Assembly: GCF_025641885.1 (NCBI RefSeq)
Contig: NZ_JAOTQN010000001.1
Location: 434,001-498,000, forward strand
DNA from: Pyrobaculum sp. 3827-6
GTDB lineage: Archaea > Thermoproteota > Thermoprotei > Thermoproteales > Thermoproteaceae
DNA: 64,000 bases
Direction: 5' to 3'
Shown here: positions 49,876 through 55,844 of the stretch, piece after piece
How the letters are laid out: the number at the start of each line of letters is the position of its first letter
Numbering within the stretch: position 1 is the first letter of the stretch
Made by a program: the position numbers and the translations under genes
The notes under the pieces: generated by a model
What the model was told of the DNA's origin: nothing
Database searches by the model: none
Seen by the model: only the letters and a program-made list of their open reading frames with translations

Positions 49876-50157
49876 AAAACGTCGTGCAGAAAGCCCTTTA
49901 CCTTTGTCAATATTTCAACTCCCCTCGGCGGATAGACAAATGTATAGGGGAGATCCAGTTTATAAAACGTCGTGCAGACCCGCGGCGCGCGGCGCCGCCG
50001 AGCTGTTGCCACACGACATTCAGCTACCAGAAGCCGCTAGGCACGCTGACACAACGTAGAAAGACAACAAAAGACAAGCAACCGCAACACAGCAACCCCT
50101 CGAATATTACACAAGAAAAACTTAAAAACCCACAAAAAACCATGACCAGAAACCCCA
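49876..50157 (+). promoter_or_regulatory. CRISPR leader and cas6 promoter region
   Basis: The 282 bases before the first repeat. AAAACGTCGTGCAGA occurs twice, at 49876-49890 and 49964-49978, each directly after TATA-like DNA. ACTTAAAAACC (about 50120-50130) is placed to start transcription just before the first repeat. AT-rich tracts before the array are normal for leaders. The array polarity (see next entry) makes this the leader end. Confidence 0.75.
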
Positions 50158-51305
50158 GTATCTCAAAAAGAGGATTGAAAGAGACGGGTAGGGCCACACG
50201 GACCTCCACGATACGGCTGAAGCGCGATATCTCAAAAAGAGGATTGAAAGCCGCGAGCTGAGCCGCCTTGATCGTAACCACATGCCCCCTCGCGTATCTC
50301 AAAAAGAGGATTGAAAGATCCACGTCATAGCTATTATCCACCCCACCACGGCGAGGAGTATCTCAAAAAGAGGATTGAAAGCAGTTGCCTAACGTGACGT
50401 GGAGGCTTCCGAACATGTCCACCGTATCTCAAAAAGAGGATTGAAAGTTGTCGCACCCGGTGGCGGGACCGCTGACCGTGATCATCTTGGCGTATCTCAA
50501 AAAGAGGATTGAAAGACGTGATCCGGCGGCTGGAGCGCAGGTGTACCGTCTCTACACGTATCTCAAAAAGAGGATTGAAAGCCCTCACATCTTCGAGAGT
50601 CACCTGCCTCAGCCTCTCCAGTATCTCAAAAAGAGGATTGAAAGATGGCAGAGCGGTGGTGGTTCACGTCGCTCTGCGTGTCGTATCTCAAAAAGAGGAT
50701 TGAAAGGTAGCTGGACGTAGCCCATCACCGATGCCTTCACGCTGGGGTAGGTATCTCAAAAAGAGGATTGAAAGAAGGGCCCTGACAAGGGACCTGACCG
50801 CGTCTCCTGGCCCGGCGGTATCTCAAAAAGAGGATTGAAAGTCAGATATGCTATAGCAGGTATCATGACCGCTCCGTGGATCACGTATCTCAAAAAGAGG
50901 ATTGAAAGGACAGCTCTTAGGCACAGACACCGCGCCGCACTGCACATACGAGTATCTCAAAAAGAGGATTGAAAGGAGTGGACGAGGTACTGGCTTGGGG
51001 AGATCGCGGAGTTCTATATCTCAAAAAGAGGATTGAAAGTTTTTTGCGGCAAATAGTATAGACGCGCTACTCTGCGTATCTCAAAAAGAGGATTGAAAGA
51101 AGAGCCTGTTAATCAGCCGCCTGCCGAAGCGTAGCGTTATGTAAGGTATCTCAAAAAGAGGATTGAAAGTACGAGCCTGGCGAGTTCCCCGTAGATCCGT
51201 CCTCAGGGAAGTGTATCTCAAAAAGAGGATTGAAAGAGCGCCTCCGCCAGCGACACCAGCATAGACGCCTTCCTAATCCGCGCATCTCAAAAAGAGGATT
51301 GAAAG
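50158..51305 (+). CRISPR. CRISPR array, 18 repeats, 17 spacers
   Basis: 24-base repeats that start GTATCTC and end ATTGAAAG, at 50158, 50227, 50294, 50358, 50424, 50492, 50558, 50621, 50683, 50751, 50818, 50885, 50952, 51016, 51076, 51146, 51213 and 51282. Spacers are 36-46 bases. ATTGAAAG is the usual eight-base 5' handle of type I-A crRNA, so transcription is on the plus strand. Repeats 2 and 14 have A for the first G; the last one has GCATCTC, a typical worn distal end. Spacer targets were not searched. Confidence 0.98.
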
Positions 51306-51483: not shown

Positions 51484-51774
51484 CTACTTTTTCGCCTCTA
51501 TCCTCTCTCTGATTTTTGCACGGTCAAACAGCTTCATGACGTCGTCGACGGCCTCAAGGAGCTCTACGCCGCGCCTAGTCAGCCGCCAGTAACCAACATT
51601 AAACTCAACCAGCTTCAGCTCCCATAGGAATTTGAGTTCCGCGTCGTACCCCAGCTTAGATACGTGATACAGCAGATCACCCTCAGCCAGCTCACCGCCA
51701 TACGCAAACAGCACCGCAAGCACCGCGACGTCAGCCACAGTAACACGGCTAGCTAAGTCCTTGACGTCGCTCAT
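51484..51774 (-). CDS. Small winged-helix protein, second of a pair
   Basis: 96 residues. VADVAVLAVLFAYGGELAEG, DLLYHVSKLGYDAELKFLWE and LVEFNVGYWRLTRRGVELLE form a winged helix of the PadR-like kind. The ATG overlaps the stop of the upstream winged-helix gene by four bases, so both are made together and probably form a heterodimer or act on the same site. Confidence 0.7.
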   Translation of the reverse strand: MSDVKDLASRVTVADVAVLAVLFAYGGELAEGDLLYHVSKLGYDAELKFLWELKLVEFNVGYWRLTRRGVELLEAVDDVMKLFDRAKIRERIEAKK

Positions 51775-52046
51775 ATAACCTCCTCGACGAATCGAAGCAC
51801 CTCCTCGCCCCGCGCAGTTATCTTATACACGCCGTTGACCTGGTCAACAAGATCCCTGCCTATCAGAGTCTTCAGCCTAGACGCGAGGCTGTGGCTAATC
51901 TTAAAACCGTACACGTCGTGAAGTACCTCGATAATTTCGGAATACCTACGCGGCTTCTCCTTCAATATCTTCAGTATTACTATATTCAACACGTCAAGCT
52001 TCACGACGAGGTTGTGCACGTGATAACTTTCAGTGACCTCTCTCAT
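51771..52046 (-). CDS. Small winged-helix protein, first of a pair
   Basis: 91 residues. LNIVILKILKEKPRRYSEII then EVLHDVYGFKISHSLASRLK, TLIGRDLVDQVNGVYKITAR is a clear winged helix. The ATG at 52046 lies inside a palindrome (52043-52062), and the TATA box GATATATAAC is just upstream, so this protein probably represses its own operon. Location inside the CRISPR-Cas locus suggests control of cas genes or of the array (context). Confidence 0.75.
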   Translation of the reverse strand: MREVTESYHVHNLVVKLDVLNIVILKILKEKPRRYSEIIEVLHDVYGFKISHSLASRLKTLIGRDLVDQVNGVYKITARGEEVLRFVEEVI

Positions 52047-52096: not shown

Positions 52097-52120
52097 GTGT
52101 TTTAAAAAGGGGATTGAAAG
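52097..52120 (+). repeat. Orphan degenerate CRISPR repeat
   Basis: The 24 bases match the array repeat at 20 positions, including the whole ATTGAAAG handle. No second repeat or spacer-repeat unit is found beside it. It lies between the cas4 stop and the winged-helix promoter, on the plus strand like the array. Confidence 0.7.
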
Positions 52121-52125
52121 CTTGT

Positions 52126-52701
52126 TTAGATTTTTTCTATCTGTGTGTATGTGTATCCGCAGTATTTTCTGTACCAGCAATTGGGGCATTTGTTTGGGTG
52201 GTGTCTTGGCTGGGGGGTCCAGCCGCTGTATATGCGGCGTATCTGGGCGGCTACGTGGTTTACTAGCTGTATGAGGTCTTGGGTGAGTGGGATTGTGGCT
52301 GTGTGGCCGGTTTCTGTGTAGTAGATGTAGGCGGCGGTGGCGGCTCTGCGGTACTGGGCCTGGGCGGCGATGGCGTAGGCGGCGGCCTGTGCTTTGTGGG
52401 GGGTTGGGACTGTGCGTGGGGGTTTGGCTAGCTTTACTTCGAGGGGGGCTGGGCGGCCGCCTATCCACAGCACGGCGTCGACGACGCCGCATATGCCGGC
52501 GCCTTCTAGGCGTGGGCTGTGTTCGACGCGGTCGGCGCCGAGGGCCTTGGCGACTGCCTCGACGGCCTCGCGCTGGGTTTCCTTTCCCCTCTTCATCCTC
52601 TCGGTGGGGGGCTCGGCGGCGCCTGTTATGATGTAGTAGGCGGCGGCTGGGCAGTAGAGGTACTGCCTGATGAGGGCTGGGTTAATGCAGAGCTGGGCCA
52701 C
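52126..52701 (-). CDS. cas4: Cas4 family nuclease
   Basis: 191 residues. N-terminal Cys in QYLYCPAAAYYI, nuclease core GVVDAVLWIGGRPAPLEVKL (D...E-X-K), and the C-terminal cluster CPNCWYRKYCGY that binds a 4Fe-4S cluster. Cas4 trims prespacers and helps set PAM and orientation. Overlaps cas2 by 20 bases in the order csa1-cas1-cas2-cas4. Confidence 0.92.
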   Translation of the reverse strand: MAQLCINPALIRQYLYCPAAAYYIITGAAEPPTERMKRGKETQREAVEAVAKALGADRVEHSPRLEGAGICGVVDAVLWIGGRPAPLEVKLAKPPRTVPTPHKAQAAAYAIAAQAQYRRAATAAYIYYTETGHTATIPLTQDLIQLVNHVAAQIRRIYSGWTPQPRHHPNKCPNCWYRKYCGYTYTQIEKI

Positions 52702-52957
52702 GGCCGCTGGGTGGGGGTGGGCCTATTCTTATCATGGCTTCCAGCGTCCTTCTGTCTATTTTGAGGATTATTATGTCTGCGTTGGCGCCTCTGACGGCTC
52801 TGGCGAGCCTCTCGGCGAGCTCCTTGACGTAGGCCGGGGGGAGGCGGCCTATGTAGGCTGACTTCTGGACGCGGGCTAGGCCGTATGACCTCAGCACCTC
52901 CGCCACCTTGTTTCTCACGTGGTCTTCGGTTATGTCGTACACCACTAGGATGTGCAT
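52682..52957 (-). CDS. cas2: CRISPR adaptation protein Cas2
   Basis: 91 residues. VVYDITEDHVRNKVAEVLRS has the N-terminal strand with the conserved Asp, and RVQKSAYIGRLPPAYVKELA follows. Ferredoxin fold dimer that bridges two Cas1 dimers in the integrase. The C-terminus (PPPPSGRGPALH) is Pro-rich. Overlaps cas1 and cas4. Confidence 0.93.
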   Translation of the reverse strand: MHILVVYDITEDHVRNKVAEVLRSYGLARVQKSAYIGRLPPAYVKELAERLARAVRGANADIIILKIDRRTLEAMIRIGPPPPSGRGPALH

Positions 52958-53832
52958 AGGGACTTCGCGAGGTGCCTTGCTTCTCTGTGTATCTCGGCTG
53001 ATACTGGGCTTCTCCCGGCGCCGAGCTCCTCCAGCACCGCGGCGGCTACGGCGAGGCGGGACTTGTGGGTGAGGAGGCCGTCTTCCACCTCAAGCTCTTC
53101 GGCGTATTTGGCCACCGCGGCGTCGACGCGGGGCCTCCACTGCTCCATGAAGTCTAGGACTAGGGAGGGCCTGCCGGACCTGTCCGCGTGTAGGAAGCCT
53201 ACGTAGGGGTCTAGGCCGGAGAGGAGTAGGGATTTGAAGCAGAGGGTTTTTAATATGCCGTAGCCGTAGTTGAGGCCGGCGTTTACGGGATCTCGGCCTT
53301 CCTGGTCGCGGCCTGGGAAGCCGGTTACCTCTCTGTAGGCGGCCCAGTAGGCCTCGGCGGCCGCGGCCTCCGCCTCCATCAGAGCCCTGGCGTCGGGGGC
53401 GCGGGCCGCGGCGTCGGCGGCCTTGCTGATCTGCTCGGCGTATTGGCTGTACCGGGCCAGCCTCCTCCGCCACGTGCGTACGTTCTCCAGCTGGCCTCTT
53501 ATCTTCCTCCAGATCCACCTCCTGGCGAACTCAAGCCCTCTGCCGTCTGCGGCGGCTTTGTACTGGCAGAGCCTCTTGGCCCCGGTGGCGTCGCCCACGG
53601 GCTTCATGAATATGCCGATGGGCTCCCCCCTCTGGTCGAACACGGCGACGGTGGCGCCGGCCCTCAGCAACGCCCTTAGGGCCTTCGTAGAGATGGATAT
53701 CCCGCCTGTGAGCAACAGCACCTCGTCTACTTCGTGGAGGGGGTATTCCCTCCTGGCGCCGGGGCTCTCGACGACGAGCAAGCCCCGCCTGGCTCTTATC
53801 CGGGTTCCGTAGCTAGCGACTGCGATCTGCAT
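52945..53832 (-). CDS. cas1: CRISPR integrase Cas1
   Basis: 295 residues. N-terminal beta-domain (LLVVESPGARREYPLHEVDE) and the helical domain with the metal site: Glu in ALMEAEAAAAEAYW, His in YVGFLHADRSG, Asp/Glu in SLVLDFMEQWRP. Full length for type I. It inserts new spacers at the leader end. Overlaps csa1 by 20 bases. Confidence 0.95.
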   Translation of the reverse strand: MQIAVASYGTRIRARRGLLVVESPGARREYPLHEVDEVLLLTGGISISTKALRALLRAGATVAVFDQRGEPIGIFMKPVGDATGAKRLCQYKAAADGRGLEFARRWIWRKIRGQLENVRTWRRRLARYSQYAEQISKAADAAARAPDARALMEAEAAAAEAYWAAYREVTGFPGRDQEGRDPVNAGLNYGYGILKTLCFKSLLLSGLDPYVGFLHADRSGRPSLVLDFMEQWRPRVDAAVAKYAEELEVEDGLLTHKSRLAVAAAVLEELGAGRSPVSAEIHREARHLAKSLCTS

Positions 53833-54706
53833 GGCATATGTGGAAGAAGGGGCACGTCCGGGGGCACTCCGGCGCGGCGCCGGGGTCGCGTCCGGAGGCT
53901 ACTATGTCTATGGCCTCGTCTCTCGCCTCGAGGAACTTAGCCCGGGCGGCGTCGCCGAGGGGGTGCGCCACGGCTCGGTACTCCACCGCGGCGTTGACGG
54001 ATATCTGGACGTGTATGCCGTAGTCGATGGGCACCCCCCACTCCGCCTCTATGGCCATGGCGTATCCCGCCAAGGCGGCCTCCACGTTTTGCGAGGGGCC
54101 GAACTTAAACTCCACCACGGCTCCGAGGGCGACGCCGTCTGCCACCACGTATCCGAGGCCTAGGGGGGCCCCGTCGACGACTACCTGGGTGGCTATTGGC
54201 GCCGTGTAGAACACAGCCGAGTCTCTCCCTCGTGCCAGTCTCGCCGCTGAGACGTAGCTGTGCTCTCCCATAAGTCTAGTGGCGATGTATTTGTACAACG
54301 CCTCGGCTTTGGGCCTCACGTCTTCTGGCATCCCCTCAAAACTGGGTGACATAGGCAGGCCGGAGTAGGCATACTTCTTGTAGTCCTCTAAGGCCTTGAA
54401 AAGGACTTGGTGCATGACTTGACCCTCCACGAGGAGCTTCGTGGCTGTCCCCCTCTCGCCCAAGACGTATTTGAGGTAGAGGTTGCGGCCCGTGGGGCAG
54501 TAGCCGTAGGCGAAGTCGGAAAGGGCAAGGCCTAGATATGCAGGGGGCTTTACCGGGGGTCTGTCGTAGCTCCAACCCCTGTACTCTGGGCTAACCTCCA
54601 CTGAACCCCATGTGATCTTTGCCCGCCTGAGCAAACGGGCTATTTCTTGGAGGGTTAACACAAAGTTTTGGCAATCTCCACGTATTATCAGTTCTGTTCT
54701 GCACAA
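53813..54706 (-). CDS. csa1: Csa1, Cas4-like protein of type I-A
   Basis: 297 residues from TTG 54706. Conserved ALSDFAYGYCPTGRNLYLKY, VEGQVMHQVLFKALEDYKKY, VVVDGAPLGLGYVVADGVAL then AVVEFKFGPSQN (nuclease-like D...E-X-K) and the C-terminal CPRTCPFFHICHADR, where three cysteines plus an N-terminal one bind Fe-S. First gene of the adaptation operon csa1-cas1-cas2-cas4. Divergent from csa3 with 33 bases between starts. Confidence 0.92.
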   Translation of the reverse strand: MCRTELIIRGDCQNFVLTLQEIARLLRRAKITWGSVEVSPEYRGWSYDRPPVKPPAYLGLALSDFAYGYCPTGRNLYLKYVLGERGTATKLLVEGQVMHQVLFKALEDYKKYAYSGLPMSPSFEGMPEDVRPKAEALYKYIATRLMGEHSYVSAARLARGRDSAVFYTAPIATQVVVDGAPLGLGYVVADGVALGAVVEFKFGPSQNVEAALAGYAMAIEAEWGVPIDYGIHVQISVNAAVEYRAVAHPLGDAARAKFLEARDEAIDIVASGRDPGAAPECPRTCPFFHICHADRSR

Positions 54707-54742
54707 GAAAAAGTTTTATTTGCAGACACCTGCAGTTAAATG
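54707..54742 (-). promoter_or_regulatory. csa1 promoter with motif shared by csa5
   Basis: On the minus strand CATTTAACTGCAGG (54742-54729) lies about nine bases upstream of the TATA box AAATAAAAC. The csa5 promoter has CATTTAACTGTAGG in the same orientation and spacing. The motif also covers the ATG of csa3 (54740-54742). TGCAG-ACAC-CTGCA (54721-54734) is an inverted repeat overlapping it. Confidence 0.7.
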
Positions 54743-55345
54743 CATCTGGCTGTAACCGTCGGCTTTGACGAGGCACTTGTGGTAAGAGCTATTGCAAACA
54801 TAAAGGCAAATGAGATTTACCTGTTAAGAGGCTTCACAAGCTCTGAGGGAGATGCAAAGTCTCAAGAAGCTGTAAGGCGGATCATAAGGGCTCTCCAGAG
54901 GGGATCAGAGCGCGTGGTGGATCTGAGAGACCCCGCCAGGGGGCTGAGGGAGATAGCCGAGATTGAATTCGACGTCGTTGCCCTCGCGGGAGGTCCTAGG
55001 CTTCTAGTCTTGCTTACATTCGCCGTGGCGGCCCTGAAGGGCGCCAAGATATACGTGGTGCCCGAATACGCGTCGGATGCCTTAGACGTGACGGGGCTCG
55101 GGAGCATTGTCGTGTTGAAGAATCTGTCTGAGGCCAAGTTGAGGCTTCTCTCGAAGCTAACCGAGTGGAAACATGCCGAGGTGGTGGCCAAGGAAGTTGG
55201 CTTGGACACCAGCACGGTATATCGTCACCTCAACTCTCTTGATGAGGTGGGTCTCGTGAGGGGCGAGGGGAAGAGGAGGAAAAAATACGTGGCGGATAGG
55301 CTGGTAACCGAACTCGCCTCCATTACGTTGAAATACATTCAATAA
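54740..55345 (+). CDS. csa3: Csa3, CARF-domain winged-helix regulator
   Basis: 201 residues. The N-terminal CARF Rossmann-like domain (AVTVGFDEALVVRAIANIKA, FDVVALAGGPRLLVLLTFAV) would bind a cyclic oligoadenylate or similar ligand. The C-terminal winged helix is WKHAEVVAKEVGLDTSTVYR then HLNSLDEVGLVRGEGKRRK. Csa3 proteins of Sulfolobus regulate adaptation and interference genes, so it is the best candidate to bind the motif shared by csa1 and csa5. Confidence 0.9.
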   Translation: MHLAVTVGFDEALVVRAIANIKANEIYLLRGFTSSEGDAKSQEAVRRIIRALQRGSERVVDLRDPARGLREIAEIEFDVVALAGGPRLLVLLTFAVAALKGAKIYVVPEYASDALDVTGLGSIVVLKNLSEAKLRLLSKLTEWKHAEVVAKEVGLDTSTVYRHLNSLDEVGLVRGEGKRRKKYVADRLVTELASITLKYIQ

Positions 55346-55402
55346 TTGCATATATTTACATTCAATTTACATTTAACTGTAGGACGCAAAGCATTTAATA
55401 TA
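55334..55402 (+). promoter_or_regulatory. csa5 operon promoter with phased repeats
   Basis: TACATTCAAT at 55334-55343 and 55357-55366 and TACATTTAAC at 55368-55377 are spaced 23 and 11 bases, close to two and one DNA turns. CATTTAACTGTAGG (55370-55383) is the motif shared with csa1. The TATA box CATTTAATATAG is at about 55391-55402, 17-28 bases before ATG 55419. Confidence 0.7.
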
Positions 55403-55418: not shown

Positions 55419-55844
55419 ATGGATATCGAAAGTCTGAGCCAAAGTAGCGTCGTCAGCCTCCTGAGGTTCTATGTGGATACCAAGCAGTACAGCGTGGTTG
55501 ACAGGTTGGCCTACGCCACCTCTCCCGCCACTGCTGAGTACGCACTTTATGAGGCGATTAGGCAGATCAGATCGGCGAAGGACCGCTCGATTATAGCAAA
55601 GCGGAGACGCGAGGAGAAAGAAGAGGAAGTCGAATGTTGTTATTACGAGGTAAAGAAGGAAGGTGGGGAGGAATGCGAGGTAGGGTTCGAGGTGGAGCAC
55701 AACGGCGTTAAGTACTGTTGTGTCACTTGTCCCCTAATCCCTCGCGAGGACGAGCTCGAGAAAATTGTTAAGGCGATTGAAAGCGATTTGTCAGTGGCGG
55801 CTAAGCTGGCGGCTCTAGCCATGGCATATAGGGCAAGGAGGTAG
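55419..55844 (+). CDS. csa5: Csa5, small subunit of the type I-A Cascade
   Basis: 141 residues. VVSLLRFYVDTKQYSVVDRL then AYATSPATAEYALYEAIRQI and IVKAIESDLSVAAKLAALAM give the helical small-subunit (Cas11-like) fold. A central insert has six cysteines (ECCYYEV, ECEVGF, YCCVTCPL), unusual for this family and possibly metal-binding. First gene of the interference operon. Confidence 0.82.
   Translation: MDIESLSQSSVVSLLRFYVDTKQYSVVDRLAYATSPATAEYALYEAIRQIRSAKDRSIIAKRRREEKEEEVECCYYEVKKEGGEECEVGFEVEHNGVKYCCVTCPLIPREDELEKIVKAIESDLSVAAKLAALAMAYRARR

What the first reader, a model, noticed from the sequence alone, without database searches (positions are those of the whole stretch)
54707..55402. Same 14-bp motif, orientation and spacing before csa1 and csa5
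CATTTAACTG(C/T)AGG lies 9-10 bases upstream of the TATA boxes of both operons in the same orientation, which fits an activator that recruits TBP/TFB. In one case it also covers the ATG of csa3, suggesting self-repression. Csa3 is the likely protein, by analogy with Sulfolobus Csa3 regulators.
Basis: partly seen in the sequence, partly recalled or inferred. Interest (0 to 1): 0.65.

Follow-up and report, generated by a model that had tools for sequence, protein, structure and literature searches.

The report
Shared regulator box before CRISPR operons
In this heat-loving archaeon and its relatives, one short DNA box sits at the same fixed distance (about 42 bases) before both halves of a CRISPR immune system, and a matching palindrome overlaps the promoter of the regulator gene csa3 between them, which suggests that one Csa3 protein runs both halves and controls its own level.

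Summary
CATTTAACTGYAGG occurs exactly twice in the 2.3-Mb genome, once before csa1 and once before csa5, but the element was drawn wrongly. Across Thermoproteaceae its CATTTAA half is not conserved; the signal is a YTGYAG box. It starts at -42 before the first interference gene (exact in 6 of 13 loci, 5/6 bases or better at -44..-42 in 11 of 13) and at -42/-43 before csa1 (10 of 10 closely related csa3-adjacent copies). It lies between csa3's TATA box and its start codon and at -74/-64 of csa1. csa1 most likely starts at GTG 54661, with its TATA at 54682-54689 and its -42-type box at 54699-54704; the TATA assigned to csa1 is csa3's. Boxes are absent from csa1 copies not beside csa3 and from ordinary promoters. 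Best reading: one Csa3 activates both operons from -42 and represses itself through the palindrome. Csa3 binding and the direction of control are inferred, not shown. In Sulfolobales, separate Csa3 proteins with unrelated sites do these jobs, so this is a new variant of a known kind.

The parts
54740..55345 (+). csa3, CARF + winged-HTH regulator (201 aa), the only csa3-family hit found in this genome
   Evidence: TIGR01884 113.6 bits (cut-off 60.2), Pfam Csa3_N and TrmB/HTH; one hit in G000
54721..54734 (.). Palindrome TGCAGACACCTGCA; sits between csa3 TATA and ATG, and at about -74/-64 of csa1
   Evidence: Exact TGCAG-N4-CTGCA 6 bp before the csa3 start in 6 genomes; the other copies inspected lie inside or at the edges of unrelated reading frames
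54699..54704 (-). Box O1, GTGCAG on - strand: -43 from csa1 GTG and -41 from csa3 ATG (shared by the divergent promoters)
   Evidence: YTGYAG-like box at -42/-43 of csa1 in all 10 closely related csa3-adjacent loci
54713..54721 (+).
   Evidence: About 24-26 nt before ATG 54740; TATA-like words peak at -26/-25 before 186 ORF starts of this clade
54682..54689 (-). Probable csa1 TATA box (GATAATAC)
   Evidence: About 25 nt before GTG 54661; GGATAWTAC-type sequence conserved in G000, G001, G002, G006, G007, G008, G014
53813..54661 (-). csa1/cas4-like adaptation gene, corrected start GTG 54661 (282 aa)
   Evidence: TIGR01896 331.8 bits; 282-aa ORFs in relatives without an upstream in-frame start
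55377..55382 (+). -42 box of the interference operon, CTGTAG
   Evidence: YTGYAG at exactly -42 in own, G001, G002, G005, G006, G015; one base off in G007, G014, G017
55394..55402 (+). csa5 TATA box TTTAATATA
   Evidence: First base at -25 from ATG 55419
55419..55844 (+). csa5, first gene of the interference operon csa5-cas7-cas5-(cas8?)-cas3'-cas3''
   Evidence: TIGR01878 55.0 bits over cut-off; neighbouring genes

Best explanation
The shared element is the operator of a single Csa3 regulator. Csa3, a CARF-winged-helix protein (probably a dimer, as in Sulfolobus), binds TGCA-centred half-sites (YTGYAG) arranged as a palindrome (TGCAG-N4-CTGCA, half-sites one helical turn apart) or as boxes 21-22 bp apart. 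A box starting at -42, abutting BRE/TATA of the leaderless csa1 and csa5 promoters, lets Csa3 recruit TBP/TFB and switch on adaptation and interference together. The palindrome, lying between csa3's TATA and its start codon, lets the same protein shut off its own gene. Shown here: conservation, fixed spacing, specificity, and linkage to csa3. Inferred: that Csa3 is the protein that binds, that the effect is activation at csa1/csa5 and repression at csa3, and that CARF ligands modulate it.
For: Palindrome at a fixed place before csa3 in 6 genomes. Boxes at -42/-43 of csa1 in 10/10 closely related csa3-adjacent loci; YTGYAG at exactly -42 before the interference operon in 6/13 loci, at least 5/6 bases at -44..-42 in 11/13. 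In 1000 shuffles of the 13 upstream regions, the most hits at one position never exceeded 2, against 6 observed. Control: among 186 ORF starts of the same DNA, YTGYAG at -42 occurs only at csa1/csa3 starts; in the own genome YTGYAG-N36-ATG is not enriched (68 hits, 98 for the control pattern). Seven csa1 copies away from csa3 lack the boxes. In G014, where csa3 sits further away, the -74/-64/-42 set stays with csa1, so it serves csa1 and not only csa3. Where the csa1 box is TTGTAG (G005, G015) the interference box is also TTGTAG, and the Csa3 recognition-helix Y161 is Ala; in G006 (TTGCAG/TTGTAG) it is Leu. Sulfolobus Csa3a activates csa1 from a site just upstream of BRE/TATA (PMC4333418).
Against: No binding data for any Thermoproteaceae Csa3. 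S. solfataricus Csa3a bound its predicted palindrome non-specifically in vitro (PMC8699464). Own csa5 box (CTGTAG) and own O1 (GTGCAG) each depart by one base from CTGCAG, and own csa5 lacks a clear second box. G008 and G011 interference promoters, and the divergent G011 and G018 csa1 promoters, lack the box. Start sites are deduced from sequence, not mapped. The helix/box correlation rests on two or three lineages.
Confidence: 0.6

Rival explanations
1. Csa3 binds the same boxes but represses both operons (Csa3b-like, possibly with Cascade), releasing them on infection.
For: Sulfolobus Csa3b represses the interference operon and footprints on the csa1 and csa5 promoters (PMC7480081; review PMC10013973). 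A -42 to -37 box abuts BRE, where binding could block TFB.
Against: The -42 position matches the activating Csa3a site described just upstream of BRE/TATA. A clear repressor-type placement (between TATA and start) is seen only at csa3.
Confidence: 0.2
2. The boxes are bound by another transcription factor (for example the small HTH proteins at 51484-52046, or a host regulator), and csa3 is only one of its targets.
For: No direct evidence ties Csa3 to the sites; two small HTH genes lie next to cas4.
Against: Box occurrence follows csa3 adjacency (present at csa3-linked csa1, absent from seven unlinked copies). The HTH pair was found at the cas4 end only in own and G003, while the boxes are family-wide. 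G004 and G016, which lack csa3, have no full palindrome, though they also lack csa1.
Confidence: 0.13
3. The 14-mer match is coincidence or common ancestry of promoter DNA without regulatory meaning.
For: The CATTTAA half is indeed not conserved.
Against: Exact positional recurrence of the box in divergent promoters, no background at -42, no shared stretch as long in shuffles.
Confidence: 0.04

Closest known systems
Sulfolobus islandicus/solfataricus Csa3a and its palindromic site (CAPPa)
   Same: CARF-wHTH Csa3 encoded divergently from the csa1-cas1-cas2-cas4 operon; palindromic operator immediately upstream of the csa1 BRE/TATA (PMC4333418, PMC8699464).
   Different: Operator sequence unrelated (TCCC-N8-GGGA / TTCNTAACTAAANANGGNNNGAAA versus TGCAG-N4-CTGCA and YTGYAG); no TCCC-N8-GGGA near csa1/csa5 here. 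Here the box is also before the interference operon, and a palindrome overlaps csa3's own promoter. No such box was seen at the expected place in the one leader read.
Sulfolobus Csa3b
   Same: Regulates the interference operon through the csa5 promoter and also touches the csa1 promoter (PMC7480081).
   Different: In Sulfolobus a second, separate Csa3 with an unrelated site; here a single csa3 lies between the two operons.
Methanosarcina mazei MM_0565 (CARF-wHTH)
   Same: CARF-wHTH protein related in structure to Csa3a that binds its own promoter (PMC7465815).
   Different: No defined DNA motif and no direct effect on type I-B cas genes reported there.

Membership tests
Csa3 family (TIGR01884, CARF + wHTH) | Score above the curated cut-off over the whole protein | tested here: met
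   113.6 bits vs 60.2, residues 3-188
Csa3 family (TIGR01884, CARF + wHTH) | N-terminal Csa3 CARF (Rossmann-like) domain plus C-terminal wHTH | tested here: met
   Csa3_N 3-103 and TrmB/ArsR-type HTH 144-185; LAGGPR motif invariant
Csa3a-type regulation (Sulfolobales) | csa3 divergent from and adjacent to csa1 of the adaptation operon | tested here: met
   81 bp between csa3 and csa1 starts in 7 genomes
Csa3a-type regulation (Sulfolobales) | CAPPa palindrome TCCC-N8-GGGA upstream of the csa1 promoter | tested here: not met
   No match with up to 1 mismatch in 54.6-55.4 kb
Csa3a-type regulation (Sulfolobales) | Protein binds the site and activates csa1-cas1-cas2-cas4 | not testable with these tools
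   Needs EMSA/footprinting and expression data
Csa3b-type regulation (Sulfolobales) | A second csa3 gene dedicated to the interference module | tested here: not met
   Only one csa3-family match in the own genome
cOA-responsive regulator | A Cas10 able to make cyclic oligoadenylates in the same genome | tested here: met
   Cas10 at C1:544198-544554 with HD and GGDD motifs; ligand binding by this Csa3 not tested

The most novel reading that the evidence does not exclude
A single Csa3 forms a self-limiting switch that turns CRISPR adaptation and interference on together through an identically placed -42 box. The operator and the Csa3 recognition helix co-evolve, and the divergent csa1/csa3 operator is retained when csa3 and the interference cassette are exchanged (own genome versus G003: cas1/2/4 97-99% identical, csa3 46%).
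Probability: 0.4. Interest if true: 0.65.

Novelty: new variant of a known kind. Interest (0 to 1): 0.48.

Why it matters
In Sulfolobales, the archaeal model in which Csa3 control has been worked out best, adaptation and interference are run by two Csa3 proteins with unrelated sites. Thermoproteaceae appear to use one Csa3 and one box for both, so taking up new spacers and destroying invaders would rise and fall together. The element gives exact, short, testable targets, and it might help explain how adaptation and interference modules can be exchanged while staying under common control.

Tried and rejected
cas6 as a further target: own and G003 carry CTGCAC before cas6, at -47/-48 from the likely start, but other relatives do not, so it is not counted. 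CRISPR leader: no box at the expected distance before the array at 50158; two CGTCGTGCAGA copies upstream (49884, 49974) left unexplained. Whole-genome hits of the palindrome or of paired boxes elsewhere lie inside or at the edges of reading frames, or are short tandem repeats, as far as inspected. Own-genome YTGYAG-N36-ATG hits: only csa5 and one site before a large P-loop ATPase-like gene (C4:182750) have a TATA-like word near -26. More distant Thermoproteales loci were too different to compare promoters. The csa5 promoter has no close DNA relative in other family genomes. The lone repeat at 52097 is a relic array end, not a regulatory RNA locus. Single-protein and profile searches of solved structures gave no full-length Csa3 hit. 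He et al. 2017 and the T. tenax cas operon paper were not held.

Full report
What is there. The window carries a type I-A CRISPR-Cas locus: cas4, cas2, cas1 and csa1 on the minus strand, csa3 on the plus strand, then csa5-cas7-cas5-(cas8?)-cas3'-cas3''. The reported 14-mers are exactly where stated and are unique in the genome, and no shuffle of the two intergenic regions gave an equally long shared stretch.

Which part matters. Aligning the csa1-csa3 intergenic region of nine family members shows that CATTTAA is not conserved. Conserved instead are CTGCA-type words: a palindrome TGCAG-N4-CTGCA and a third box about 22 bp away on the other side of an AT-rich box. Exact TGCAG-N4-CTGCA occurs only once or twice in most genomes that have it, and in six genomes one copy sits 6 bp before the csa3 start; the other copies inspected lie inside or at the edges of unrelated reading frames.

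Where the promoters are. In these genomes TATA-like words peak at -26/-25 from ORF starts, as expected for leaderless genes. csa3 ATG 54740 has GTTTTATTT at that distance. For csa1 the TTG at 54706 is not the start: relatives give a 282-aa protein from the conserved GTG and several have no earlier start. From GTG 54661 the TATA is GATAATAC (54689-54682). In seven genomes the csa3 and csa1 starts are 81 bp apart, so box O1 (54699-54704) lies at about -42 of both genes, while the palindrome lies at -74/-64 of csa1 and inside the csa3 core promoter.

The csa5 side. Before the first interference gene, YTGYAG starts at exactly -42 in own, G001, G002, G005, G006 and G015; one base differs at -42 in G007, G014 and G017; G003 and G018 have near matches at -44 and -43; G008 and G011 have none. 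Several also have a second TGCA-type box at about -63 (G001, G002, G006, G005/G015). Shuffling the upstream regions never gave more than 2 hits at one position, against 6 observed. At least 5/6 bases at -44..-42 is found in 11/13 of these promoters but in only 18 of 221 control starts, a set that includes csa1/csa3 starts themselves.

Link to Csa3. The boxes occur at csa1 copies next to csa3 (10/10 in the closer group; absent in divergent G011 and G018) and not at seven csa1 copies elsewhere. In G014, csa3 has moved away from csa1 and its promoter has no boxes, yet csa1 keeps -74/-64/-42 boxes: the set belongs functionally to csa1 as well. In G005 and G015 both operons carry TTGTAG at -42, and Csa3 has Ala instead of Tyr at recognition-helix position 161; G006 has Leu there and TTGCAG/TTGTAG boxes. 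G005 and G015 have nearly identical loci and count as one event.

Mechanism (inferred). A box abutting BRE/TATA is the usual place for an archaeal activator and is where Sulfolobus Csa3a acts on csa1 (PMC4333418). A palindrome between TATA and start is the usual place for a repressor. Together: one Csa3, positive on csa1 and csa5, negative on itself. The alternative that Csa3 represses everything (Csa3b-like) is open. A Cas10 with HD and GGDD motifs in the genome makes control by cyclic oligoadenylates possible, but in S. solfataricus cA4 did not change specific DNA binding by Csa3 (PMC8844856, PMC8699464).

Comparison. The Sulfolobales operator (CAPPa, TCCC-N8-GGGA) is absent from this locus, and Csa3b's site is unrelated to CAPPa and served by a second protein. 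No description of the Thermoproteaceae box was found in the papers searched, but two relevant papers were not held, so novelty of the motif is likely, not proven.

Module exchange. Own and G003 have cas1/cas2/cas4 97-99% identical, csa1 88% and csa3 46% identical, with different interference cassettes, yet both keep the palindrome. csa3 thus seems to travel with the interference cassette while the divergent operator stays compatible.

Noticed in passing
52097-52120: A lone degenerate CRISPR repeat (GTGTTTTAAAAAGGGGATTGAAAG) just past the cas4 end, separated from the array by two small HTH genes; G003 has a similar repeat there, and several relatives have array repeats near this point, so probably a relic array end.
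   Followed up: yes
51484-52046: Two small overlapping HTH genes between the CRISPR array and cas4, 93-96% identical in G003 and not found at this place in the other relatives.
   Followed up: partly
49884-49889 and 49974-49979: Two copies of CGTCGTGCAGA next to TATA-like words upstream of the CRISPR leader and cas6; function unclear.
   Followed up: partly
L102 vs window 52126-54661: Adaptation genes cas1/2/4 97-99% identical to G003 while csa3 is only 46% identical and the interference cassette differs: a module swap with the breakpoint near csa1/csa3.
   Followed up: partly
L103 and L108: The csa3-csa1 regions of G005 and G015 (assigned to different genera) are nearly identical, suggesting recent transfer of the locus.
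   Followed up: no
L116 and L171 (own genome C1:536-545 kb): A second csa1/cas1/cas2/cas4 module lies about 7 kb from a Cas10 (HD and GGDD present) with a Csx1-like DLTHG protein beside it; this csa1 lacks the boxes.
   Followed up: partly
L162, own genome C4:182750-182794 (-): TTGTAG at -42 with a TATA-like word near -27 before a large P-loop ATPase-like gene (912 aa); the only other such candidate in the own genome, inside the end of the upstream gene.
   Followed up: partly
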